A stretch of DNA of 64,000 bases from Cyanobium sp. ATX 6F1. GTDB lineage: Bacteria > Cyanobacteriota > Cyanobacteriia > PCC-6307 > Cyanobiaceae. The translations under genes were made by a program, and so were the position numbers. The stretch is from positions 62,001 through 126,000 of the forward strand of contig NZ_JAGQCS010000005.1 in assembly GCF_024346315.1 (NCBI RefSeq), written 5' to 3'. Each line of letters starts with the position of its first letter. Positions within the stretch are counted from its first letter, which is position 1. The notes under the pieces are model-generated. The model worked only from the letters and a program-made list of their open reading frames with translations. It did not search any database and had not been told where the DNA came from. Shown piece after piece: positions 52,187 through 64,000 of this stretch.

Positions 52187-52261
52187 GGGCTCCAGTTCCA
52201 GAGCAGGAAGCCAAGCAAGGCGCCTGACAGGGCGACGAGGGGTAGCAGCGTTGGCGGGATC
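52187..52261 (-). pseudogene. fragment of a second MraY/WecA-family transferase gene
   Basis: These 75 bp align with 53336-53410 in the intact transferase gene with 11 mismatches and no gaps. On the minus strand they encode IPPTLLPLVALSGALLGFLLWNWSP, against IPSALLPLAALVGALLGFLLWNWSP in the intact gene. The flanking 52068-52360 has no other recognisable coding sequence. A relic of a duplicated or replaced copy. Confidence 0.75.
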
Positions 52262-52360: not shown

Positions 52361-52633
52361 TCAAGACGGACGCTTCAAGGCAAATCCCACAGCACCACCA
52401 AGAACCAGCTGAAGAACCCCGGTAGCCCAGTCAGCACGCTTCTCAGGTATCGGCCGGAAGAAACTGAGCAACAAGATCGCTGCGGAGAACTCAGCGATAG
52501 CACCGATCGACACAACCGCATTGCCCTCGAGCCGATGTCTCTGCCTGCGGTCATCGGGGTGTTCAGCACTTCTGACTTCCACGCCACCGGTGAGATCCAG
52601 AAGGGTCTTGAAATCGGCGTTGGGATCGCTCAT
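52361..52633 (-). CDS. 90-residue two-helix membrane protein of unknown function
   Basis: Hydrophilic N-terminus, then two hydrophobic segments (about 39-59, VSIGAIAEFSAAILLLSFF, and 69-86, WATGVLQLVLGGAVGFALK) separated by a Pro/charged hairpin. ATG at 52633 follows directly after the stop of the ribbon-helix-helix gene, so both are one transcription unit. No family recognised. It ends next to the broken transferase relic. Confidence 0.6.
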   Translation of the reverse strand: MSDPNADFKTLLDLTGGVEVRSAEHPDDRRQRHRLEGNAVVSIGAIAEFSAAILLLSFFRPIPEKRADWATGVLQLVLGGAVGFALKRPS

Positions 52634-52837
52634 TCAAATGCTCACGAGGGTTTCTCGTTGGTCGTCCTTCACGAATTGGAGCGTGGCACCAGCGTCTTCC
52701 CGCTCCTTAACCAGCAAATACAAGGCGAGGGCACGGCGGAACACGTCGGTTTTGGTGAGCCCCTCTGAAGTGGCCAAAGATTCCAGTCGCTCACTGAGGC
52801 GATCAGGCAGACGCACTTCCAGGCGGGAGGCTGTCAT
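52634..52837 (-). CDS. ribbon-helix-helix DNA-binding protein
   Basis: 67 residues with a CopG/MetJ-like pattern: strand MTASRLEVRLP, helix DRLSERLESLATSEG (12-26), turn LTKT, helix DVFRRALALYLLVKERED (31-48). Such proteins bind DNA as dimers and often regulate their own operon, commonly as antitoxins. The downstream partner is a membrane protein rather than a recognised toxin. The 101-bp gap before it could carry its operator. Confidence 0.75.
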   Translation of the reverse strand: MTASRLEVRLPDRLSERLESLATSEGLTKTDVFRRALALYLLVKEREDAGATLQFVKDDQRETLVSI

Positions 52838-52938
52838 GGGCTAAAACCGGCATTGATACGGATGATATTAGGGTGAAAACTGGGTTTCTTACGGAGGAAT
52901 TCCGCCTTTTCTACCTTGCCCCCCTCTGGGCCTCCCCA

Positions 52939-53925
52939 TCACACCCGCGCCGCCACCGCAAACGGCACCGCCACCCGCTGATCGAGCCACAGGCCCACCA
53001 ACAGCTCAAGGGCCGCAAGGGACATCACCCAAGCCAAGCCACCAAGCAGCAACGCAATAGCAAGCAGGCCGGTGGCGCCGATGTAGAGGCTGGAGACGCG
53101 AGCATGGGGCCAACCGGCCTGGTGCAGGCGCTGGAACAGGTGCAGGCGGTGGGCCTGGAACACGCGCTGGCCGGCCAGCAAACGGCGGGGCACGCAGAGG
53201 CAAGCGTCGCCGAGCAGGGGGGTGGCCACCAGCAGCAGGCCCAGGGCCAGGGGCCAGCTGGGGGCTTGCAGCACCACGCCGGCAAACACGGCGCCGAGGA
53301 AGGTGCTGCCCACATCACCCATGAACACCTTGGCGGGGCTCCAGTTCCAGAGCAGGAAGCCGAGCAGGGCGCCCACTAGGGCGGCGAGGGGCAGCAGCGC
53401 TGACGGAATCGGACCGGTCAACCCGGGGCTGGAGAACAGCGCTGTGGTGAACAGCACCGCCATGCAGCCGGCCACCAGACCATCGAGGCCGTCCATGAAG
53501 TTGGTGAAGTTGATCACGGCGGTGATTGCGATCAACAACAAGGGGACCTCCAGCCAGGCCAAGCCGAAGGGCAGGGGCGAAAGCACAACCAGGGCTACGG
53601 CCGTCAGCACTTGCACCAGGTAGCGCAGGCGGGCGGGCAGGTTGAAGCGATCATCGCCCAGGCCGAGGGCGGCCAGGGGAAGGGCCACTGCGGGCAACCA
53701 GGCAGCAGCGCCAAACCAGGGAGCGAGCAGCAGGGAGGCCAACCCCGCAACGATCACAAAAGCCACCCCCCCGCCACGGGGTGTGACACGCTGGTGGGCG
53801 CTCCGGACATTGGGAGTATCGGGGAGACGCTTGGCAAGGAAGGGGATCAGGCGGAGAAGCAGTAGCCAGCAAAGGCATGCCGACAAAACAAACGCTGTCA
53901 ATGGAAACAGACAAGAATCTCGCAA
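52939..53925 (-). CDS. MraY/WecA-type polyprenyl-phosphate glycosyl-1-phosphate transferase
   Basis: 328 residues with about ten transmembrane helices. NVRSAHQRVTPRGGGVAFVIV opening, cytoplasmic ITAVINFTNFMDGLDGLVAG (Asp-rich, metal binding) and LWNWSPAKVFMGDVGSTFLG, then the HRLHLFQRLHQAG basic loop. It transfers a sugar-1-phosphate, probably GlcNAc or a derivative, to undecaprenyl phosphate in surface polysaccharide or peptidoglycan-like pathways. It is the last GC-rich gene before the AT-rich block, and a relic copy lies at 52187. Confidence 0.88.
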   Translation of the reverse strand: MRDSCLFPLTAFVLSACLCWLLLLRLIPFLAKRLPDTPNVRSAHQRVTPRGGGVAFVIVAGLASLLLAPWFGAAAWLPAVALPLAALGLGDDRFNLPARLRYLVQVLTAVALVVLSPLPFGLAWLEVPLLLIAITAVINFTNFMDGLDGLVAGCMAVLFTTALFSSPGLTGPIPSALLPLAALVGALLGFLLWNWSPAKVFMGDVGSTFLGAVFAGVVLQAPSWPLALGLLLVATPLLGDACLCVPRRLLAGQRVFQAHRLHLFQRLHQAGWPHARVSSLYIGATGLLAIALLLGGLAWVMSLAALELLVGLWLDQRVAVPFAVAARV

Positions 53926-53983: not shown

Positions 53984-54973
53984 TTAAAAGTCAAAAATGT
54001 CAGCGAGCCAGCCAGATATTGAATAGCGCAAAAGAATCTCCTGGGAAAAAGGAGAAAATGAACTCTCTAAAAAAGTGTGATCAATGAATGGTCTTTTTCG
54101 ATCTATAACAAAAACGTTGGCTTCAGAAAAAAAATCGTAGTCACGGACAAGAGGGTTTGTAGTAACAAGCTTCTTCCCGGAACCGAGTGCCTCAAACGTC
54201 CTCATCGTCAATCCAGCTTGACGAGGGTGAGCAATATCAAGAACCACCTTAGAATGCAGAAACACAGAGTGGAGGAGATCCTTCGCAAGTGGCGTAAATT
54301 GAAAGTCGGAGCGTTTGGCATGTCGCATGTTCCATTTAGACAACCGATATGCCTGAAAGACCCAAGGTGCCTGCAAGTATAGATACCAGAAGCACAAAAT
54401 ATTCGAGGGAAGACAGGAATTGAGGTTATTAACAACAGAAAAGCGGTCGCTATGCGCTGTACCAACAAAACTTATATGGTATTTAATAGAAGGAGGGCGA
54501 TCCGAAGGCGCAAAACCACTACCATAAAAGAGCGCACGAAAACGAAGCCCATATTTGATCGCATCTAACGAATCAAAGGTGAATATAGAATCATACAATC
54601 TAAAGCATTTTTTCACAGTAGGGCGATTAGTCACAGAGTCCCACATGTAAAGTATGAAACGTGCCGCAGGAAAACATTGACGCATAAATTGAAGAAAAGA
54701 AGGGGTTAATGTTTGCCCGTTGATCACAAAAATATAGTCATATCTTGAAACTCCAAGGCGACTCAACAGACGCTTATAAAGACTAGTTGCGGCTGGAGTG
54801 ACCAGAAAAGGGAAAAATCTAGTCAATGCCTTCCCCATTGAACTATCGAAGGGCCTATCCGGCATCCAATCTACCAAGGCCCCAAGCTTCTCTAACTCAG
54901 AAACGATCTCCAAGTGATATCCAAATATTGGAGGAGCAAAAAAAAGAACACGTTTGCCGACAAGAAAACCCAT
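53984..54973 (-). CDS. probable glycosyltransferase of the polysaccharide cluster
   Basis: 329 residues with CgeB/GT-B-like features: KRVLFFAPPIFGYHLEIVSELEKLG, RYDYIFVINGQTLTPSFLQFMRQ, ARFILYMWDSVTNRP, KYHISFVGTAHSDRF and AGLTMRTFEALGSGKKLVTTNP, the last being a nucleotide-sugar-binding type motif. No membrane span. AT-rich, with Leu/Phe/Ser codons unlike the upstream genes. Donor and acceptor unknown. Confidence 0.72.
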   Translation of the reverse strand: MGFLVGKRVLFFAPPIFGYHLEIVSELEKLGALVDWMPDRPFDSSMGKALTRFFPFLVTPAATSLYKRLLSRLGVSRYDYIFVINGQTLTPSFLQFMRQCFPAARFILYMWDSVTNRPTVKKCFRLYDSIFTFDSLDAIKYGLRFRALFYGSGFAPSDRPPSIKYHISFVGTAHSDRFSVVNNLNSCLPSNILCFWYLYLQAPWVFQAYRLSKWNMRHAKRSDFQFTPLAKDLLHSVFLHSKVVLDIAHPRQAGLTMRTFEALGSGKKLVTTNPLVRDYDFFSEANVFVIDRKRPFIDHTFLESSFSPFSQEILLRYSISGWLADIFDF

Positions 54974-54981
54974 GACTACAA

Positions 54982-55569
54982 TCAGGCAATCGGCTTGGCA
55001 GAATTAACATTACGGGCAGGAGATCCGACTGCCAAGTAGCCAGACGGAACAGAGGCTAGGACAACTGAATTAGCGCCAACCTGGCTTCCATTACCGAGGT
55101 GAATCCCACCAAGCACTACCGCGCCCGCTCCAATTGAGACACAATCACCGATCGATGGTCGGGTGAGCAAACTAGGCATGAAGTCCAAATCGCGCGCTCC
55201 AATCGTGACACCTTGAAAAATTGTGGCATTTGAACCAATTCGCCAAGCCCCAATTACAGTGCCCTGAGTATGTGGCAGAAAAAGCCCCGGCCCAATGGGA
55301 CAAGAAACAGAAATTTCAATTCCAAAAATAGCAAAGTTTAGAAATGATATAGACTTAGCCAGGATGCCAAGGTTGTGCCGATAAAAGCTATGTGATAAGC
55401 GATAAAGAAGTACAGGCAAATATCTTGGAGAAACGCCTGAAATCCACAATTGCAGGCAAGATGGCAGAGCTTCCTGTCCATAGATCAATTGGAATTGGCG
55501 AATTAGATCTGCATGAACTAAGTTGACAGTTCCCAAGTACAACACTTTACCAGCATCAGAAATCGTCAT
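54982..55569 (-). CDS. serine O-acetyltransferase/WcaB-like hexapeptide acyltransferase
   Basis: 195 residues. An N-terminal helical part, then a left-handed beta-helix with hexapeptide repeats: FGIEISVSCPIGPGLFLPHTQGTVIGAWRIGSNATIFQGVTIGARD, SIGDCVSIGAGAVVLGGIHLGNGSQVGANSVVLASVPSGYLAVGSPAR. Within this locus it probably acetylates a sugar residue rather than serine. Start overlaps the upstream epimerase stop by 4 bp. Confidence 0.85.
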   Translation of the reverse strand: MTISDAGKVLYLGTVNLVHADLIRQFQLIYGQEALPSCLQLWISGVSPRYLPVLLYRLSHSFYRHNLGILAKSISFLNFAIFGIEISVSCPIGPGLFLPHTQGTVIGAWRIGSNATIFQGVTIGARDLDFMPSLLTRPSIGDCVSIGAGAVVLGGIHLGNGSQVGANSVVLASVPSGYLAVGSPARNVNSAKPIA

Positions 55570-56708
55570 CCCATTAGCTTGCGATCACGCAACTCAGAAT
55601 TCGCACGCTCTAGTTGGTCTTCTGGCAGAGGCTGAGATTGAACCCAAGCAGCAAAACGATCCAATCCTTCCGCTAAGGTGATTCGGGGGCAATCAGGCAG
55701 CAGTTGACGCAGCCGGGTGATATCGGCAAAATTATGTCGTATATCACCCAATCGATATTCGGAGGTAATGCGCACGGGGGCTTGCATGTTTAACGATGCC
55801 ATGAGTTGCTTAGCAACTTCTAATACACTTGTGGAAATTCCACTACCCACATTGATGACGCGATTGATAGGCTCAGAAGAAAGAGCGCAAGATTGGATGG
55901 CCCTCGCCACATCTTCTACATGAACAAAGTCTCGAGATTCAAGCCCATCCTCAAATATTGGCAGCTCAAGTCCGCGGCGGATTCGAGTAGAAAAGATAGA
56001 AAGAATACCAGTGTAGGGATTATTTAAGGATTGTCCTTCACCAAATACATTTTGAAGTCTTAGTATAGCATAATCCATACCAAGTGCACCACATGCCACT
56101 CGAACTAAATCTTCTTGTGCATATTTTGTGGCAGCATAGATAGAAGCAGGGAGCACTTGATCTGATTCACGGGTTGCTACGGCTTGAAGTGGAAAGCCGC
56201 ACACGTTGCATGAAGGCTCCCATTTATGGGCAGAAAGCTCGGCTAAGCTTCTAGATTGGGGAAATTGGCGGACAGAGCTTCCAACACAGGCAGGACAGAT
56301 GAAGGATCCCTCTCCATAAACAGAACGACTGGATGTAAGAACAATACGCTCTACAGTCCTATTGGGTGAATTAGCAATAACGTCTAATAGAAGTGCGGTT
56401 CCTTGGGAATTAACTTGATTATAATTCGCTATAGCATACATAGATTGCCCAGTACCGGTTTCAGCCGCGAGATGCACTACACACTCAACTCCATCAAGTG
56501 CTTTAGAGAGAGCCTGTGGATCGAGTATTGAGGCTCGGACAAATTCAACAGAAGAGCTTGATAACCAACTCAAGCCCGAAGGAAGTTCACCATGTACCTG
56601 TGAAGACAGAGAATCTAGAATGCGAATTTGAACGGCAGAAGACTTAAGAATTCTGCAAAGATTTGCACCAATAAATCCAGCACCACCTGTAATCAGTATG
56701 GTAGTCAT
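55566..56708 (-). CDS. NAD-dependent epimerase, TDP-L-rhamnose 4-epimerase-like
   Basis: 380-residue SDR with GGAGFIGANLC, YAATKYAQEDLVR (Tyr191, Lys195), LRLQNVFGEGQSLNNPYTGILSIF and RDFVHVEDVARAI. It has an insertion carrying two Cys pairs, CPAC (138-141) and CNVC (167-170), as in Tll/WbiB-type epimerases that make TDP-6-deoxy-L-talose from TDP-rhamnose; the pairs could bind zinc. No rml genes are in the window, so TDP-rhamnose would come from elsewhere. Confidence 0.8.
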   Translation of the reverse strand: MTTILITGGAGFIGANLCRILKSSAVQIRILDSLSSQVHGELPSGLSWLSSSSVEFVRASILDPQALSKALDGVECVVHLAAETGTGQSMYAIANYNQVNSQGTALLLDVIANSPNRTVERIVLTSSRSVYGEGSFICPACVGSSVRQFPQSRSLAELSAHKWEPSCNVCGFPLQAVATRESDQVLPASIYAATKYAQEDLVRVACGALGMDYAILRLQNVFGEGQSLNNPYTGILSIFSTRIRRGLELPIFEDGLESRDFVHVEDVARAIQSCALSSEPINRVINVGSGISTSVLEVAKQLMASLNMQAPVRITSEYRLGDIRHNFADITRLRQLLPDCPRITLAEGLDRFAAWVQSQPLPEDQLERANSELRDRKLMG

Positions 56709-56837
56709 ACTTAAATTGACAAATGAGGTGAGAATTGCAACAAAAGTCTTGTCAAAGAATGTGGGGAGACGGGGTCATTAAATGGGGTGTGGCACAAGAT
56801 CCTAAAGAATCTACATCAACGTTCGATTTTATGCTTT

Positions 56838-57665
56838 TCAGGACGGCAAAAGACGACCAAACCAATTGAGGAGAATTCTCCTGAGAAATCTTAATATCTG
56901 AAAGAGAACAAACAGCACAGTAGAAAGAGAAGAGAGCGATCCACGCTTTCGACAATTAAGTATATTCTCAATATTACCAAGATACATCGCTAAGACATTA
57001 CTGCTAAGTCTAACACGATTAGATTTAGCTGGATTGGCATGATTGCTATAATCTCTTGTATCATACTCTACCAATCCTAATCTCAAAAGCAATATCGACC
57101 CCTTTTCGGCAAGCCTATTATAAAAGTCACCTTCCTCTGCAAATCTTCTACCAAAAGGGAATAAACCAGCAGCAAGGAATGACTCAGAACGAACAACAAG
57201 GGTTGACGGCTGAATATAGTTTCGCAGGAGAAGATCTAAGGTTCTCAAAGAAGTTACAGTGTTTTCCAATATACCAGTACAATTAGGCGAGTCGATTAAA
57301 CAACATGCCACAGCCATAATGCTTGGGTGGCAAAAAAGAGGAATCTGAAACTCCATCTTATTAACGGCCCATTGATCATCGGCATCGCAAAACGCAATGA
57401 AGTCAACACCTGCACTTAAGGATGCATTAATACCAGTATTTCTAGAATTTGACACACCTTGATTAACCTGATGGGTAATAATGTCTACCAATCCAATGAA
57501 TCTATTGGCCAGCCCACCAATCAACATCTTTGAAGATAGAGGAGAAGAGCAATCATTGACGATAACGATGAGGCATGGCGGAAGGGTCTGATTGGCGACA
57601 GATGAAATCGCATTAAATACCTCTGGACCATTATTGTAAAAAGGAATAACAACGGAATATTTCAT
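56838..57665 (-). CDS. family 2 glycosyltransferase
   Basis: 275-residue GT-A enzyme: YSVVIPFYNNGPEVFNAISSVANQ opening, VIVNDCSSPLSS, GVSNSRNTGINASLSAGVDFIAFCDADDQW with the DxD (FCDADD) motif that binds the metal-nucleotide sugar. C-terminal basic/hydrophobic stretch VLFVLFQILRFLRRILLNWFG. 129 bp of non-coding, AT-rich DNA separates it from the epimerase gene. Confidence 0.88.
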   Translation of the reverse strand: MKYSVVIPFYNNGPEVFNAISSVANQTLPPCLIVIVNDCSSPLSSKMLIGGLANRFIGLVDIITHQVNQGVSNSRNTGINASLSAGVDFIAFCDADDQWAVNKMEFQIPLFCHPSIMAVACCLIDSPNCTGILENTVTSLRTLDLLLRNYIQPSTLVVRSESFLAAGLFPFGRRFAEEGDFYNRLAEKGSILLLRLGLVEYDTRDYSNHANPAKSNRVRLSSNVLAMYLGNIENILNCRKRGSLSSLSTVLFVLFQILRFLRRILLNWFGRLLPS

Positions 57666-57669
57666 TTTA

Positions 57670-58824
57670 CTATTTCAGGCTCTTGCGGCCAATGGCCAAG
57701 CATGAAGTAGCAGTAAGTGTATTTGAAGCAAAAAACAACAAAAGAATAAATGCTATAAAATAAGTAGGAAGAAAAAAGAAGTTCGAAAAAAATGACGTCA
57801 ATATAGTCATTAAACAAAGCGCCATGGCTGCAGATGCAAATATATTTTTTTCCTTAGTACGTTTATAAAGTGATGAGGCAACAAACATGCCATAAATAAC
57901 AATGGATAGGTAAAAGCTAGCAAACCAGCCAGCCTGCTTAAAGGTTAGGAAGCCGGTACTAACATTCAAAGCAGGATTGTCTAAGTCAATCGAACAATTT
58001 AATACGCTATATTGGCCGGAGAAGAAGCTCCTTAATGGTGAAGGAAAAAGAGAGAGGATAGGCGAAAATTCATCAGCGCACGTATCAGCCCATGCAGAAT
58101 TTAGATTACCCAACGGACTAGTAAAATATACTAGCACCCATGTAAAGCCAGAAGGCAGTAAAGCCAGCAAGCCCTTTGTTCTTTCGTCAAAAAGAGAAAG
58201 AAAAGGATTGGCATATTCACCACGTGAATCGCCAATGATGCCGAATACTATAATAAGAACAATCACTCCCAAGATAAATGGAACTATATTTTTTACCGAA
58301 ATTTTAATTTGATTTAAGTAGAAATAAGTAGCCACTAAGTAGCAGATAAAGAATACTAGGTGCCCCCTCCTAACAGTTAAAACCTGGTAAAGAAGGATTG
58401 AGCCAACACCAATGATTCTAGACGAGCGAGAGAGCCTATCTGAAAAAGATAGATAAGGAAGGAGCAAGAGTGCGATTGCATTCATAAAGCCGCCGAGGCC
58501 TTTTGTCCCCCATTCTCCATAGTTATTGAAGCCAAGGCTAAAAATTGGAAGAGTGCCTTGTGTAGCAATCTCGAGTATCGTTAATCCTATCCAAAAAGCA
58601 TATATATATCTAACAATAGATGAGACTTGTTTAGTGGAAAAATTCCAGCGTGTCAAGGAAACTATAGGAACAGACGAAACCGCAAAGAAGACTAGGACTG
58701 GCGCAGATATCAACATAACTAGTAAGTTACTAGAAACTTCTTGATAATGCGCCATTGGGAAAGCTATATATAGACCGAGGCAGGAAACTAATAACAGATA
58801 ATAAGCCTGAAGAAATAACATCAT
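57670..58824 (-). CDS. Wzy-like oligosaccharide repeat-unit polymerase
   Basis: 384 residues, almost entirely hydrophobic, with about ten transmembrane segments and one larger extracytoplasmic loop (DSRGEYANPFLSLFDERTKGLLALLPSG, SPLGNLNSAWADTCADEFSP). This is the topology of O-antigen/capsule polymerases that join lipid-linked repeat units at the periplasmic face. Sequence conservation is weak in this family, so the call rests on topology and context. Neighbours: a GT2 gene on each side, 4 and 8 bp away. Confidence 0.72.
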   Translation of the reverse strand: MMLFLQAYYLLLVSCLGLYIAFPMAHYQEVSSNLLVMLISAPVLVFFAVSSVPIVSLTRWNFSTKQVSSIVRYIYAFWIGLTILEIATQGTLPIFSLGFNNYGEWGTKGLGGFMNAIALLLLPYLSFSDRLSRSSRIIGVGSILLYQVLTVRRGHLVFFICYLVATYFYLNQIKISVKNIVPFILGVIVLIIVFGIIGDSRGEYANPFLSLFDERTKGLLALLPSGFTWVLVYFTSPLGNLNSAWADTCADEFSPILSLFPSPLRSFFSGQYSVLNCSIDLDNPALNVSTGFLTFKQAGWFASFYLSIVIYGMFVASSLYKRTKEKNIFASAAMALCLMTILTSFFSNFFFLPTYFIAFILLLFFASNTLTATSCLAIGRKSLK

Positions 58825-58832
58825 GATCCCAC

Positions 58833-59564
58833 TTAAATTAATTGAGCCAAACCAAGCTTCGCTATCCTTAATATGAATAATACATACTGCAAGCCTGGCA
58901 TAGGCTCTGTTTTGAGCTGAACTTCAAAGAACTCGAGAAGGTAATGAAAAGAATCGCTTGAACTGTAACCAGACAAACCATAGCAACCTGCTATAAATGA
59001 AGAATGAACTGTAGCCACACCAGCAGTTACAGCTATCTTAAGAAAGTAAGCATCTGCCATCATCGGAAATCTTGAAGAATATAAGCCAAAACGATGGTGC
59101 AGTTGTGTTTTTATGAGGGTGCCGACCGAATGAGATGACCCTATACCATGCATTCCAAGCAACCAGCCTAATTTTTGCCTTGGATAAATAATTTGACGCC
59201 CCCTTCTTATTGCAGAAAATATTAAGTCAGGCTCATTATTAAGTCCTATTAAAGTATAATAGTTTTCTATGGCACATCTATCCAACGTATCGTCCGCTCC
59301 TACCACTAGATAATATTGGGTTTGAACATGAAGAATAGCACGATTTAACCCATGATAAATGGAGAAATCTTCACCCCTAAGAATATTTTTATTCTCTAGT
59401 TCCGTTGCTTCAACGATGTGGATAGTATCGTCGATTGATCCAGAGTCTGCGACGAGCCAAATAAAGTCAAGCCTTGACTGCGCTTCTAAAGACTTGGCCA
59501 AGCTCCCAATATGCCGAGCAGCATTTTTTGTAGGAGTTACAATGGTGATTTGATTATTAATCAT
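58833..59564 (-). CDS. family 2 glycosyltransferase
   Basis: 243 residues. TIVTPTKNAARHIGSLAKSLEAQSRLDFIWLVADSGSIDDT opening, and GADDTLD as the DxD-like catalytic motif (VVGADDTL). Resembles WcaA-like GT2 enzymes of colanic acid clusters. A C-terminal hydrophobic stretch LQYVLFILRIAKLGL may attach it to the membrane. Upstream is a region broken by IS elements, so it may have been cut off from its original promoter. Confidence 0.85.
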   Translation of the reverse strand: MINNQITIVTPTKNAARHIGSLAKSLEAQSRLDFIWLVADSGSIDDTIHIVEATELENKNILRGEDFSIYHGLNRAILHVQTQYYLVVGADDTLDRCAIENYYTLIGLNNEPDLIFSAIRRGRQIIYPRQKLGWLLGMHGIGSSHSVGTLIKTQLHHRFGLYSSRFPMMADAYFLKIAVTAGVATVHSSFIAGCYGLSGYSSSDSFHYLLEFFEVQLKTEPMPGLQYVLFILRIAKLGLAQLI

Positions 59565-60005
59565 GCAAGATCGAATCGATCAAGGACAATAAATTTGAGG
59601 CACTTAAAGTCAATTAGAATTAACCAGAAGCCTGAACGCAAGATACAATTTAAAGATGGGTAACAGAGCAGCTCGAATTATTGCCATTCCTGAGCCAACC
59701 TGAAGAGGCCGCAAAGAGATAACCCGCAAGTGCGGATCTACCCCACCCAACCCCTTGCTAGCGCTGCCGCCTCCTGGCAAAGCGCCTCGAGATGGACGGG
59801 GGGCGGGCGGAATGGTCCAGGGATTGGGCTGGCCTCCCATGCAGGCGGAGCTGAGGGCAACCGCATCGGTGTTGCGCCGCATGGCTGTTAAGCAGATCCG
59901 TGTGGGCCGGAAGATCCACTCCGTAACTATGCAGCCGGTGCACCCAGCCATAGCCGGTGGCAGCCCGGTGGAGGTAGATGGTGGGGGGCATGGCTGGCCG
60001 ATGTC
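59565..60005. other. unassigned non-coding DNA between a GT2 gene and IS remnants
   Basis: 59565-59640 is AT-rich like the polysaccharide genes; 59641-60005 is GC-rich. Minus-strand frames stay open across part of it, but none resembles a known family, and no start or internal motif is convincing. The GC-rich part most likely represents decayed flanking DNA of the neighbouring IS remnant. Confidence 0.4.
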
Positions 60006-60258
60006 CTGCTTTGGAGCGGAGCTTGCGGTCCATCCGGCCACGGGCATCGAGATCTTTCGGTGGTCTGCCCCGTGATGGCCTGGATCTGTGGCTGTGCTGC
60101 TGCCGGCTGGTGGAGATGTAGGCATTCAGCCCGCGCTGCCCACAGGCCTTAAGATTCAAGGTGCTGCAGTAACCTGCGTCTGCCGTGAGCACCACTGGCA
60201 ACTGGCTGGTGTTGGCCAGGGTCCGCTCCAGCAACCGCTTCGCGGAAGCCAAGGCCTA
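60006..60258 (-). mobile_element. remnant of an IS1182-family transposase
   Basis: The minus strand encodes LLERTLANTSQLPVVLTADAGYCS followed by AYISTSRQQHSHRSRP, PPKDLDARGRMDRKL and RSKAG. It matches the DDE-region of the neighbouring element's transposase; about 100 bp (60006-60112) are nearly identical to 60538-60644, then divergence increases. The reading stops matching after SKAG, and the 5' part is missing, cut at the left end of the complete element. Confidence 0.8.
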
Positions 60259-60272
60259 GGAGCGTGTCGCAC
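60259..60272 (+). repeat. left terminal inverted repeat of the IS1182-family element
   Basis: GGAGCGTGTCGCAC; the inverse copy is at 61992-62005 with one mismatch. It directly abuts the older transposase remnant. Confidence 0.8.
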
Positions 60273-60355
60273 GTTGAGCCCGACCAAGGCCTGACACAGC
60301 GGCTGGTGGTTCAGCGAATTGATTGGCCAAAAAGCCAGCCGCATTGAGGGGGACC

Positions 60356-61904
60356 TCAGGCCCTCGCCACCACCACCCTGAACAACTTGAGGATGTTGTG
60401 GGTGGTAGCCATCAGGGCCCATTCCCCATTCACCTGCTCCAGGCCCCGCAACCAGAACCGATCCAACCGCCTGGCCCCCTTGATCTGGCCAAACACCGGC
60501 TCGACCACCGACTTGCGCAAGGCGTAGACCGCCTGCCCTGCTTTGGAGCTGAGCTTGCGATCCATCCGGCCACGGGCATCGAGATCTTTCGGTGGTCTGC
60601 CCCGTGATGGCCTGGATCTGTGGCCGTGCTGCTGCCGGCTGGTGGAGATGTAGGCCTTGAGTCCGATCTGCTCGCATGCCTCCAGGTTGGCGCTGCTGCA
60701 GTAACCCGCGTCTGCCGTCAGCGCGGCGGGCAACTTACCGGTGTTGGCCTTGATCCGCTCCAGCATGGGCATCAGATGCACCGCATCGCTGGCCTGGTTG
60801 CTGACGCCGATGGCCACGATCACCTGGTGATCACCATCGACGGCGGCCTGGGCGTTGTAGCCCTGGATCCAGCCATCACTGCCCTTGAGGATGTGGCTGT
60901 CGGGGTCCGAAAAGTTCCTCTGAGCCTGGGGCTTGGGATTGCCCGTCGCATCGGTGGGGAGATGGCGGTGCGGCATCGCCATGGGATCGGCTTCTGCGGC
61001 TGTGACCGGTGAGGCGAGTCCAGCAACCTCTGCGTTCTCTATCGCCAACTTCTGGGCGTCATCCGCCCGTTTGCGGGCACCACGAGCACGCCGTGCCGCG
61101 CGCTTGCTGGCCTGGGCATCGCTACTGGCCTCAGCCTCGGTTGCTTTCTGCTCTGCTTCCTCAGCCTGCTCTGTGTGTTGGCGAGCCTTGCTTGCTGCCG
61201 CCTCGGCCTCCAGCTCAGCCTTGGCCTTGCGGATCCACTCCAGCCGGCTGCTGCGCCGCTGCAGCTCCTCAGGAAGTTCATCACCCCGCTTCTCTTTGCC
61301 GTACTGGCCGTCTTCCTGGGCGTCGATGATCTCTGCCTTGCGCAGCAGCGCCCGCATTTCGGCTTCCAGCTGCTTCTCGCTCCTGAGCATCCGCTCGTGA
61401 CTCATGGCCTTGTGCTTGCTGGCGTTGGCTTTGACCTTGGTGCCATCCAGCGCCACATGACCCAAGCTCACCAGCCCCGCCTTCTGGCACAGCCGCAGCA
61501 CCTGAACAAACAAGCCGGCCAAAGCCGTGAGATGGCGCCGGCGAAAATCGCTGTAGCCGTAAGGCTTCTGCGTAGCAGTAACGGCTGTGGTCGGGTTGCT
61601 GGTTGCCGGTCAGGACCCGGAAGGCGGCGTCCTCCCAGCAAGTCTTCTCAATCTTGCGGGAGCTGGGCAGCCCGACGCAGTAGGCATACAGGAGCAGCAC
61701 CACAATCATTCGGGGCTCATAGGCCTTTTCGCCCCGAGGATCCTTCTGGCGGTAGACGGCGTGGATCGCCTCGAGATCCAGCTCAGCGGCCAGATCCAAC
61801 AGGAAAAACACCAGGCTATTCTCTGGAAGCCAATCCACCGGTGAGGGTGGCAGCAGCAGCGTCTGCTCGGGGTTCCATGGACGGAAGGATTTGGGCCTGA
61901 CCAT
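60356..61904 (-). pseudogene. IS1182-family transposase with a 25-nt disruption
   Basis: N-terminal part reads from ATG 61904: MVRPKSFRPWNPEQTLLLPP, VYRQKDPRGEKAYEPRMIVVLLLYAYCVG, GNQQPDHSRY. A 25-bp segment at 61553-61577 then shifts the frame. If it is removed, DHSRY continues directly as SDFRRRHLTALAGLFVQVLRLCQKAG. The rest, to 60356, keeps the DDE triad: ALDGTKV, ALTADAGY and VVEPVFGQIKG. The corrected protein would have 507 residues, as expected for IS1182. As it stands it is probably inactive, unless frameshifting restores it. Confidence 0.82.
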
Positions 61905-61991: not shown

Positions 61992-62005
61992 GTGCGACAA
62001 GCTCC
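61992..62005 (-). repeat. right terminal inverted repeat of the IS1182-family element
   Basis: GTGCGACAAGCTCC on the plus strand, inverse of 60259-60272 with one mismatch. Followed by AT-rich intergenic DNA (62006-62136) in which I see no gene. Confidence 0.8.
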
Positions 62006-62136
62006 AAGTGGGTTCCTGGCGAATCCATCCACTAAAACTCAATCAGCTCGCTTATAAATTGGCCTGCCCTAATGCTAAACACTTCAAAAAATATCGGCCA
62101 ATACAGAAACATAAATATTTATGTATCAGCCATGTC

Positions 62137-63123
62137 TCAAATCGCACTTCTGAAATACCCCAATGCCGAATGGAAGAAACGCAGCCAAGGCCTTGGCATC
62201 AGAAGAAGGGGGAAGCATGTTATCCAGAAAACTGGGTAACGATATAGGGCCGGAATCAAATTCAGCAAAGCATGACGCTCTGATTGCATTCCCTGAAATA
62301 CGGTCGCACCACGACGAGAAGAGTAGATAACCCTAGGCAGATATGAATACAGATAGGTAGTAATTAGAGCCAACTCTAACTTTCGATTGCCTCGTGTGCT
62401 CTCTTGAACAAATTTTGGATAATTGACCCCAAAAGTCCTTAGCTGCTGATACCCTCCGCTATTGCCCAAAGTAGCAAACACACAAGGCTCCTTGGATGCA
62501 ATAAGAACAGAGGCTCGGCAAAGTAATGGAAGAATCCATCCCAATTGAATAAGAGACGTACCCAAACCTTCTTCAATCTGAACGAGTCCAACCCCCCTAG
62601 AACGCATTGACAAAGAATTAACAACCCAAGAGCTTACAAAAGTAGTCCTTATGTTTATCTTTCGAGCATAGTCAAGCATCTCGAACGACTCCAACTCGAG
62701 CTCCTGAAGCCTTGGCATGGAGATCTCGTAAATATTTGGCGCCCAATAAGATTCTAAATATAGAAGTGTTGGGCGAATTGTATATAGCTTTTGCAGTAGC
62801 TTTCCGATTAATCCTTGGCGCGGCATATCATCATCGCTAATTATCCAAAAATAGTGGGTCTTGACCCTAGAAAACAACTCTAGAAAAATTCGATCTGGGC
62901 CAATATTGGATTCTAATCTAAATGAAGACACAAAAGGATTCTTGGCCAAAAAGTTTTTGACAAACTCTGCAGTGCCATCATTACTACCATTATCACCGAT
63001 TACAAGATGAACATCAGCCTCAAGTCCGCAAAGCTCTGACTCAAGGGAAGATAAAAGCCGAACAAGAAAGCCAAGCCGATTAAAAGTGGGAACTAGAATT
63101 GTCAGAAGCTTTTTATGACTCAT
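62137..63123 (-). CDS. family 2 glycosyltransferase
   Basis: 328 residues from the ATG at 63123 (MSHKKLLTILVPTFNRLGFL). Contains VHLVIGDNGSNDGTAEFVKNF and the catalytic WIISDDDMPRQG. The C-terminal part is hydrophobic and basic (YPVFWITCFPLLLMPRPWLRFF), suggesting a membrane-associated enzyme. The start overlaps the flippase stop by ATGA. AT-rich codon use. Last gene before the IS element in transcription order. Confidence 0.85.
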   Translation of the reverse strand: MSHKKLLTILVPTFNRLGFLVRLLSSLESELCGLEADVHLVIGDNGSNDGTAEFVKNFLAKNPFVSSFRLESNIGPDRIFLELFSRVKTHYFWIISDDDMPRQGLIGKLLQKLYTIRPTLLYLESYWAPNIYEISMPRLQELELESFEMLDYARKINIRTTFVSSWVVNSLSMRSRGVGLVQIEEGLGTSLIQLGWILPLLCRASVLIASKEPCVFATLGNSGGYQQLRTFGVNYPKFVQESTRGNRKLELALITTYLYSYLPRVIYSSRRGATVFQGMQSERHALLNLIPALYRYPVFWITCFPLLLMPRPWLRFFHSALGYFRSAI

Positions 63124-64000
63124 GCCAAATGAGATGCCTTCACTATCTTGAACACCCGAAATGCGAAGAAACAAGACATCAAACTTACAACTGAATAGCC
63201 AAGAAGCATTGTGCTCAGATTCATCCTGCTGCCAATAATTAATACCGGCAGCATGGCCAATGCGGTAAAGATAGATACCATTAAAAGTGGCTCATCTCTG
63301 TGAGCACGCAGATAAATCGACAAGCAATACGTGATGCCAATAAACAGCGTTGCAGTAGCAATTAGCCAGATGTCAACTGGGTCAAGGATTCTAGTGGCTA
63401 AGATTGGCCATTGCTGCACTCCAAACAATGCCCCTAGGGCTGCGCCTTGTGTCACTAGAACTAGAGATATTATTGACAATCGAAGACTTCGAAAAAATAG
63501 ACAATCTAATGAGATAAACTCTCCATTGGCAATCATTTTTGCAAAGTCTGGCGCCAGCGCCGTTGTGAACGTGCTGCCTACAACAAGTAATGAACTCATG
63601 ACATTCATAATCAAACCAAGCCTTCCAGCGACTGCTGGCCCAAAAGATCTGAATGCAATCGGTGTAAATAGCTGAAAGATGAAGTATCCACTGATCCAGC
63701 TGAGCGAAATCTTCCATTGCATCGGGAAGATTTTGACCTTCCATAGTGCCAATAAATCCCGCCTTGCAAGCGAACTTCCTTGACGCATCTTTCGATAGGG
63801 CGCCGCTAGAGGATGCTGATAAAGCCAATAAGTAGAAAACATCGCGGCGGTCAAAGGAATGGCAACGGCAGCCCAAAGCTTGAGCCCAGAACTCAGCGCC
63901 AATAGAAAGAATAGACTCCCAAAGATGCTCTGCTTAGTTCTCATCGCTGACACATCAGCCATGCAGCCTATTGCCTCAAGGTAAGTGAGCTTTCCACTTT
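63120..64000 (-). CDS. Wzx-like polysaccharide flippase (partial, 5' end beyond window)
   Basis: The frame is open to the window edge, so at least 292 C-terminal residues are present and the start lies beyond 64000; the ATG at 63962 is unlikely to be the true start since the upstream residues (SGKLTYLEAIGC) continue the protein. Eight or nine hydrophobic segments, with FGPAVAGRLGLIMNVMSSL and VDIWLIATATLFIGITYCLSIYLRAHR typical of the MOP/PST flippase family. It moves lipid-linked repeat units across the membrane, pairing with the Wzy-like gene. Confidence 0.78.
   Translation of the reverse strand, partial: SGKLTYLEAIGCMADVSAMRTKQSIFGSLFFLLALSSGLKLWAAVAIPLTAAMFSTYWLYQHPLAAPYRKMRQGSSLARRDLLALWKVKIFPMQWKISLSWISGYFIFQLFTPIAFRSFGPAVAGRLGLIMNVMSSLLVVGSTFTTALAPDFAKMIANGEFISLDCLFFRSLRLSIISLVLVTQGAALGALFGVQQWPILATRILDPVDIWLIATATLFIGITYCLSIYLRAHRDEPLLMVSIFTALAMLPVLIIGSRMNLSTMLLGYSVVSLMSCFFAFRVFKIVKASHLA

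What the first reader, a model, noticed from the sequence alone, without database searches (positions are those of the whole stretch)
52361..52837. Ribbon-helix-helix regulator coupled to an unknown two-helix membrane protein
A 67-residue RHH protein is directly followed (TGAATG) by a 90-residue protein with two transmembrane helices. The layout resembles toxin-antitoxin modules, but the partner is not a known toxin. It sits between polysaccharide genes next to a gene relic, a typical landing place for small mobile modules.
Basis: partly seen in the sequence, partly recalled or inferred. Interest (0 to 1): 0.5.

Follow-up and report, generated by a model that had tools for sequence, protein, structure and literature searches.

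The report
Candidate toxin-antitoxin pair with membrane toxin
A small DNA-binding protein and a small two-helix membrane protein form a recurring gene pair in cyanobacteria that looks like a toxin-antitoxin unit whose toxin would act on the cell membrane, though toxicity has not been tested.

Summary
In detail: an RHH gene (52634-52837, minus) is followed directly (TGAATG) by a 90-aa gene with two predicted membrane helices (52361-52633, minus). The pair recurs. In 400 Cyanobiaceae genomes an RHH profile gave 40 hits; of 36 intact, readable RHH genes, 23 are followed by an intact two-helix gene and 8 by a broken or deleted one. No intact membrane gene without its RHH was met among the readable family loci, though the main search started from the RHH. 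Distant pairs occur in other cyanobacterial families. In 12 module-bearing genomes, 30 of 65 RHH_1 hits were read: 7 of 7 module genes lead to the membrane gene, 17 of 23 others to PIN, MazF-like or ParE-like genes. The membrane gene thus sits in the toxin slot. Small neighbours are rich in toxin-antitoxin families; control regions show none with two or more members. The membrane gene is under strong purifying selection, and repeated CCG(T/G)(A/T) boxes precede the RHH in 5 of 9 close relatives. No library family covers the membrane protein. Best reading: an autoregulated type II-like toxin-antitoxin module with a membrane hairpin as toxin. Toxicity, neutralisation and complex formation are untested.

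The parts
52634..52837 (-). RHH (CopG-type) protein, 67 aa, predicted antitoxin and autoregulator; C-terminal tail perhaps a beta-hairpin
   Evidence: (PF01402, 28.7 bits); closest natural solved relative by profile is CopG 2cpg/1b01 (E 0.003-0.004); the hairpin comes only from a low-confidence fold
52361..52633 (-). 90-aa protein with two predicted membrane helices, predicted toxin: charged N-tail with EHPxDRxQRH, TM1, RPxPxxxxxDW loop, TM2 ending GGAVGFALKR
   Evidence: (dN/dS 0.034); no family above cut-off
52846..52861 (-). operator-like direct repeat CCGTATCAATGCCGGT (two half-sites 11 bp apart) beginning 24 bp upstream of the RHH start
   Evidence: 6 places in the own genome fit the pattern; the pattern read backwards fits 68; 5 of 9 relatives carry such a repeat
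52890..52894 (-). a further single CCGTA box upstream
   Evidence: read; function inferred only
52187..52261 (-). remnant of a WecA-like gene downstream of the pair (75 bp, 85% identical to 53336-53410); probably not part of the module
   Evidence: (weak PF00953 match in the ORF, below cut-off)

Best explanation
The pair is an autoregulated two-gene toxin-antitoxin module of type II layout. The RHH protein (antitoxin, first gene) binds CCGTA-type repeats at its own promoter and restrains the second gene product. The second product is a helical hairpin in the membrane, presumably with both ends in the cytoplasm, which oligomerises (conserved G79xxxG83 in TM2) and depolarises or permeabilises the membrane when the antitoxin is lost. 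Shown here: adjacency and its conservation, purifying selection, the shared toxin slot, toxin-antitoxin-rich surroundings, one-sided decay, repeats before the gene, predicted hairpin. Inferred: operator binding, toxicity, neutralisation by contact with the cytoplasmic N-tail, pore formation and topology.
For: Adjacency: 31 of 36 intact readable RHH genes in Cyanobiaceae have, or had, the two-helix gene next: 23 intact, 8 broken or deleted. Beyond the family: of 13 other genomes with a membrane-profile hit, 7 have the RHH as next upstream gene (0 to about 150 bp), 1 has it about 600 bp upstream and 1 has an intact RHH before a fragment. Slot: 30 of 65 RHH_1 hits in 12 module-bearing genomes were read; 7 of 7 module genes lead to the membrane gene, 17 of 23 others to PIN, MazF-like or ParE-like genes by eye; 10 of those 17 were put to Pfam and all 10 pass cut-off. 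In the own genome the two other RHH_1 genes lead to PemK/MazF and PIN. Surroundings: families with at least 2 members among 131 small neighbours include PIN 7, PhdYeFM 3, HEPN 3, FitA 3, MazE 3, ParD 2, Unstab_antitox 2, Zeta 2, RHH_1 2; no toxin-antitoxin family has 2 or more members among 79 control proteins. Decay: 8 cases of RHH intact with the membrane gene broken or gone, none of the reverse among the readable family loci. Repeats: 5 of 9 upstream regions vs a shuffle mean of 0.02. Selection: dN/dS 0.034 and 0.016 for the membrane gene.
Against: No toxicity or binding data exist. The main decay count comes from an RHH-based search and so favours finding intact RHH genes. Outside the family, 4 of 13 genomes have the membrane domain without this RHH upstream: G836, G459, G858 and a pseudogene in G789, and many RHH genes of the class have no membrane gene next (22 of 29 read). 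In the family, 5 of 36 intact RHH genes have no trace of it (4 in G025, one with a MazF-like gene). Purifying selection is stronger on the membrane gene than on the RHH, more than a non-specific pore would seem to need. The fused RHH-membrane model has pLDDT 49 and says nothing about an interface. One natural chimera (L154) pairs RHH type with N-tail type, but over 21 pairs RHH similarity follows the hairpin (r 0.41) and not the N-tail (r 0.16; partial r -0.01). No plasmid record matched the two membrane proteins tried.
Confidence: 0.67

Rival explanations
1. A membrane-tethered regulatory pair, not a toxin: the RHH repressor controls the pair and is sequestered at the membrane by the two-helix protein, which relays an envelope signal.
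For: Direct coupling and upstream repeats; strong purifying selection on the membrane protein; conserved charged N-tail motif EHPxDRxQRH; some copies lie near sugar-nucleotide genes.
Against: Such a pair would not be expected in toxin-antitoxin clusters, in the position taken by PIN, MazF and ParE toxins in the same genomes, with patchy presence (RHH profile in 29 of 400 genomes) or with one-sided loss of the membrane gene.
Confidence: 0.18
2. An anti-phage abortive-infection unit in which the membrane protein is a two-helix effector released when a phage disturbs the RHH protein. This overlaps with the main reading but puts the function in defence.
For: Neighbours include AbiEii, HEPN, HipA and type I specificity subunits. 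Viral contigs carry RHH genes of this profile mostly without the membrane gene: 3 of 37 loci have an intact membrane gene and one more a broken remnant, as expected if phages keep the RHH as an antidote.
Against: No PADLOC match; toxin-antitoxin clusters are common in such genomes for other reasons; viral RHH genes may be ordinary phage regulators; some viral contigs may be host DNA.
Confidence: 0.1
3. Coincidental neighbours: an RHH antitoxin relic and an unrelated small membrane gene.
For: Small ORFs are frequent in high-GC DNA; the two proteins belong to no shared named system.
Against: Adjacency across many genomes and several divergent subfamilies, overlapping or abutting start and stop codons in most, and dN/dS of 0.08 and 0.034.
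Confidence: 0.02

Closest known systems
Type II toxin-antitoxin systems with RHH antitoxins (RHH-PIN, RHH-MazF, RHH-ParE)
   Same: Two small coupled genes, RHH gene first, repeats at the promoter, clustered with other toxin-antitoxin genes in the same genomes
   Different: The partner is a two-helix membrane protein with no match to these toxin families; contact and neutralisation untested
PanAT and RosmerTA systems with membrane-depolarising toxins (PMC8832971, PMC10440598; passages read)
   Same: Small toxin with predicted membrane helices, in some after a charged N-terminal region, paired with a protein antitoxin; the likely working model
   Different: The antitoxins there carry Panacea or other domains; no sequence relationship was tested here. 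In the passages read, RHH antitoxins went with nucleases
Type I Hok-like membrane toxins (recalled)
   Same: Small hydrophobic toxin acting on the inner membrane
   Different: Their antitoxin is RNA; here a conserved protein gene is coupled to it
SLATT and other 2TM effectors of conflict systems (recalled; PMC7159879 seen only in a search listing)
   Same: Two membrane helices used as a presumed effector
   Different: No Pfam match above cut-off for the membrane proteins scanned; these are coupled to an RHH gene

Membership tests
RHH_1/CopG family (PF01402) | profile match above curated cut-off | tested here: met
   28.7 bits vs 20.5
RHH_1/CopG family (PF01402) | binds operator repeats at its own promoter | tested here: inconclusive
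   repeats present upstream in 5 of 9 relatives; binding not testable here
Type II toxin-antitoxin system | two small, coupled, conserved genes, one with a DNA-binding domain | tested here: met
Type II toxin-antitoxin system | patchy distribution and company of other toxin-antitoxin genes | tested here: met
   RHH profile in 29 of 400 family genomes; neighbours vs controls
Type II toxin-antitoxin system | second protein is toxic and is neutralised by direct binding of the first | not testable with these tools
   needs expression and binding assays; fused model too poor
Known toxin families (RelE/ParE, PIN, MazF, HicA, Fic, HipA and others) | profile match of the toxin | tested here: not met
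   no Pfam or NCBIfam match above cut-off for the 90-aa protein
PADLOC defence systems | profile match | tested here: not met
   0 families for both proteins
PanAT / RosmerTA | antitoxin with a Panacea (DUF4065) or ImmA-type domain | tested here: not met
   the 67-aa protein matches RHH models, plus a sub-threshold DUF6290 match, and no Panacea or ImmA model
Phage holin or other PHROG families | profile match | tested here: not met
   0 PHROGs for 7 relatives; two distant relatives have sub-threshold Pfam holin matches; Foldseek vs BFVD, best E 1.6

The most novel reading that the evidence does not exclude
A cyanobacteria-wide superfamily of toxin-antitoxin modules in which a CopG-type RHH antitoxin restrains a membrane-permeabilising helical hairpin. 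The hairpin and the antitoxin-recognising tail can be exchanged between modules (chimera L154). Cyanophages carry the RHH gene alone, or with a broken membrane gene, as an antidote to the host module.
Probability: 0.18. Interest if true: 0.8.

Novelty: new variant of a known kind. Interest (0 to 1): 0.6.

Why it matters
A classical type II survey left membrane partners out: Makarova et al. 2009 dropped three Xre-plus-membrane pairs because 'no type II TAS with a membrane component were detected so far', and its list of RHH partners holds no membrane protein (PMC2701414; passages and sections 5, part 1, and 15 read). Later work found membrane-depolarising toxins under Panacea-type antitoxins. 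An RHH-paired membrane toxin across cyanobacteria would add an effector class to a very common antitoxin fold, would mean toxin-antitoxin counts in freshwater picocyanobacteria may be too low, and would offer a direct test of whether phages carry lone RHH antidotes.

Tried and rejected
Insertion by target duplication: rejected for the window, since the flanking fragment is an 85% identical old remnant. Empty-site comparison: not possible, the only genus-mate held lacks a close island wecA. Plasmid and phage records: no match for two membrane proteins in plasmids; one weak match for one RHH (G086b) in plasmids and none in phages; no viral contig encodes a relative of the window's membrane protein. 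Structure: the hairpin model gives no Foldseek match below E 1; the fused RHH-membrane fold has pLDDT 49 and was discarded. N-tail as general specificity determinant: suggested by one chimera, not borne out over 21 pairs. Polysaccharide association as a rule: sugar-nucleotide families occur near modules but the large-neighbour lists are too thin to claim enrichment. One dN/dS value (G363 vs G139 RHH) was computed in a wrong frame and is not used. Literature: searches listed no paper that I could recognise as describing an RHH antitoxin with a two-helix membrane toxin; the library holds open-licence papers only.

Full report
WHAT IS THERE. On the minus strand, a 67-aa RHH gene (52837 to 52634) is followed without a gap (TGAATG) by a 90-aa gene (52633 to 52361). 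The first protein is PF01402 above cut-off. The second has no family above cut-off in Pfam, NCBIfam or PADLOC and no PHROG. A fold of the second protein from an alignment of 13 sequences gives a short N-terminal helix and two long helices (26-57, 64-86), mean pLDDT 75.8: a likely membrane hairpin with a charged N-tail. The pair lies between a large CapD-like gene (by eye) and a WecA-like gene (PF00953), near the edge of a segment where G+C falls from about 0.65 to 0.39-0.47 (54-60 kb).

CONSERVED PAIR. The membrane protein sequence was sought in 400 genomes of the family; 31 gave a match at E 0.1 or better. Ten, the window's own included, gave strong matches (E 1e-16 or better). In the nine of these with readable upstream sequence the RHH gene is directly upstream; the tenth (G086) is cut by a contig end. 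Of the nine, G170's membrane gene is broken. The 21 weaker genomes were only glanced at, in an output that was cut; one of them, G044, is a true divergent pair. An RHH profile gave 40 hits in 29 of 400 genomes. I read what follows each. Two are set aside: G220 is a fragment, and in G187 the next stretch is masked. Of the other 38, 36 RHH genes are intact. Of these, 23 are followed by an intact two-helix gene (one, G267c, runs into a contig end), 8 by a broken or deleted one (G170, G249, G261b, G082, G143, G297, G008, G090), 4 by neither (all in G025) and 1 by a MazF-like gene (G170c). The two broken RHH genes (G267a, G347) have no membrane gene. 'Two-helix' was judged by eye and alignment: a strict hydropathy rule (19 residues, 1.6) shows one or two peaks and none in G267b and G063; a milder one (17 residues, 1.0) shows two peaks in 14 of the 15 intact partners outside the window's own subfamily, 83-110 aa long, the exception being the cut G267c. 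Several subfamilies are too divergent to be found by the window's protein but keep the plan: charged H/R/E-rich tail, helix, short polar loop, Gly-rich helix.

BEYOND THE FAMILY. In 242 genomes of the class, the RHH profile gave 39 places in 37 genomes. Of 29 places read besides the own one, 7 have a two-helix protein next, starting within about 65 bp of the RHH stop (L097, L099, L103, L110, L116, L120, L121); many of the other 22 are lone RHH genes of another type. Nine places without a fetched locus were not read there; one of them, G872, was met again. A membrane profile found 13 other genomes. In seven the RHH is the next upstream gene, 0 to about 150 bp away (G744, G767, G804, G756, G882, G872, G807). 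G738 has it about 600 bp upstream. G834 has an intact RHH before a membrane fragment. G789 is a pseudogene without RHH. G836, G459 and G858 have no such RHH. That profile (A5) contains some of these proteins. The narrower profile A1, tried on 386 genomes of the phylum, found the own genome and five weak matches (E 0.0016 to 0.027) whose frames did not look like the pair, so the long-range homology rests on plan and motif ((T/S)PE(D/E)R..R..R before TM1, GYxxGK or GFxxKR after TM2).

SELECTION. Window vs G018: dN/dS 0.08 (RHH) and 0.034 (membrane gene), dS 0.92 and 1.61. G363 vs G139: membrane gene 0.016. Both genes are real and constrained.

PROMOTER REPEATS. CCG(T/G)(A/T)-N6-CCG(T/G)(A/T) occurs upstream of the RHH in 5 of 9 close relatives; in the window it begins 24 bp before the start (52846-52861). 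2000 base-shuffles gave a mean of 0.02 relatives and a maximum of 1. The pattern was chosen after looking, and the shuffles keep single-base composition only. A stricter form occurs at 6 places in the 2.96 Mb genome, one of them here.

THE TOXIN SLOT. RHH_1 was searched in 12 module-bearing genomes: 65 hits, of which 30 loci were returned and read. Seven are module genes and all have the two-helix gene next. Of 23 others, 17 are followed by toxin-like genes (10 PIN, 6 MazF-like of which one is truncated, 1 ParE-like; read by eye) and 6 are unclear or cut. Ten of the 17 partners were put to Pfam and all 10 pass the cut-off for PIN, PemK/MazF or ParE. A simple hydrophobicity rule also flagged 3 of the 23 (two are PIN proteins, one a doubtful ORF). 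In the window's own genome the two other RHH_1 genes are followed by PemK/MazF and PIN. Most RHH_1 genes read in these genomes thus look like antitoxins, and the two-helix protein takes the toxin's place.

NEIGHBOURHOOD. With a gene caller of my own, neighbours within 6 kb were compared with 20 regions elsewhere in the same or related genomes. Small proteins (up to 200 aa): 131 of 192 non-redundant ones on the module side and 79 of 86 on the control side were scanned; on the module side I dropped loci outside the family, the window's one entry and others, mostly very short, by hand, while the control side kept four regions from outside the family. Module side: PIN 7, HTH_3 5, HTH_31 4, PhdYeFM 3, HEPN 3, FitA 3, MazE 3, ParD 2, Unstab_antitox 2, Zeta 2, RHH_1 2, Fic 1, HicB 1, with 25 of 66 families shown. 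Control: no toxin-antitoxin family among the 25 of 53 shown, so none with two or more members; single ones may be hidden. Larger neighbours (93 of 140 against 123 of 145 controls): HipA 2, AbiEii at least 1, type I specificity 2, GDP-mannose dehydratase 2, epimerase 2 on the module side (25 of 119 families shown); none of these among the 25 of 168 control families shown, though AAA_21, described as putative AbiEii, appears twice there.

DECAY. The 8 cases of intact RHH with a broken or missing membrane gene, and none of the reverse among readable family loci, fit a toxin that can be lost only before its antidote. The search began from the RHH, which biases this count, and some cases are from draft genomes. 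The membrane-based search found no intact membrane gene without its RHH among those readable.

VIRUSES. In IMG/VR contigs the RHH profile found 37 loci. Three (two nearly identical) have an intact two-helix gene next, one (L141) has a frame-broken remnant, and in 33 I saw none in the stretch read. One viral-contig pair, L154, looks chimeric: its RHH and the protein's N-tail match subfamily C (z 43 and 21), its hairpin matches G267b (z 24; 4 for C). This suggests that the N-tail is what the RHH recognises. Over 21 pairs, though, RHH similarity tracks the hairpin (r 0.41, p 0.0002) and not the N-tail (r 0.16, p 0.06; partial r -0.01).

LITERATURE. Makarova et al. 2009 (PMC2701414; outline, passages, section 5 part 1 and section 15) list RHH partners with at least 20 occurrences (RelE, PIN, GNAT, MazF, COG2929, HicA and others) without a membrane protein, and excluded three Xre-membrane pairs. 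Kurata et al. 2022 and Ernits et al. 2023 (PMC8832971, PMC10440598; author names recalled; passages read) show membrane-depolarising toxins with Panacea-type and Rosmer antitoxins. Work on Synechococcus CB0101 (PMC5498466, passages) lists seven pairs, all of classical families. A paper on Synechocystis systems (PMC4963859, passages) showed nothing on RHH with membrane proteins. A review (PMC12413379, passages) reports many toxin-antitoxin genes in freshwater and estuarine picocyanobacteria. Searches listed no report of an RHH antitoxin with such a toxin that I could recognise.

Counts above were recounted; the best-explanation odds went from 0.68 to 0.67 and the regulatory rival from 0.17 to 0.18 because the lone RHH genes in the class (22 of 29) had not been told as evidence against.

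VERDICT. A conserved cyanobacterial gene pair, best read as a toxin-antitoxin module with a membrane-acting toxin: a new variant of a known kind, functionally unproven.

Noticed in passing
window 54000-59900 and 62000-64000: G+C drops to 0.39-0.47 within a 0.63-0.66 neighbourhood; 54-59.6 kb holds ORFs that by eye are glycosyltransferase-, epimerase- and acetyltransferase-like, so an imported polysaccharide cluster is likely, with the module near its edge.
   Followed up: partly
window 59610-61000: ORFs in different frames (59610-60125, 59758-60252, 60356-61000) read by eye like pieces of a broken transposase; a family scan failed.
   Followed up: no
L142-L146, L150, L158, L165, L169-L172, L177 (IMG/VR contigs): Viral contigs carry lone RHH genes of this profile, one next to a gene that by eye is thyX-like (L146); possible phage antidotes or ordinary phage regulators.
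   Followed up: partly
L038, L039, L040: Clusters of small paired genes around the module copies in G018, G222 and G242; by eye AbrB, ParD, Xre, MNT-HEPN and ParE-like pairs. AbiEii was confirmed by Pfam in L038.
   Followed up: partly
L138 (G459): A membrane relative lies downstream of a different, longer protein whose C-terminus looks RHH-like by eye, a possible partner swap.
   Followed up: no
L132 (G738): Between the RHH gene and the intact membrane gene lies an ORF that by eye resembles a decayed copy of the membrane protein's N-tail.
   Followed up: no
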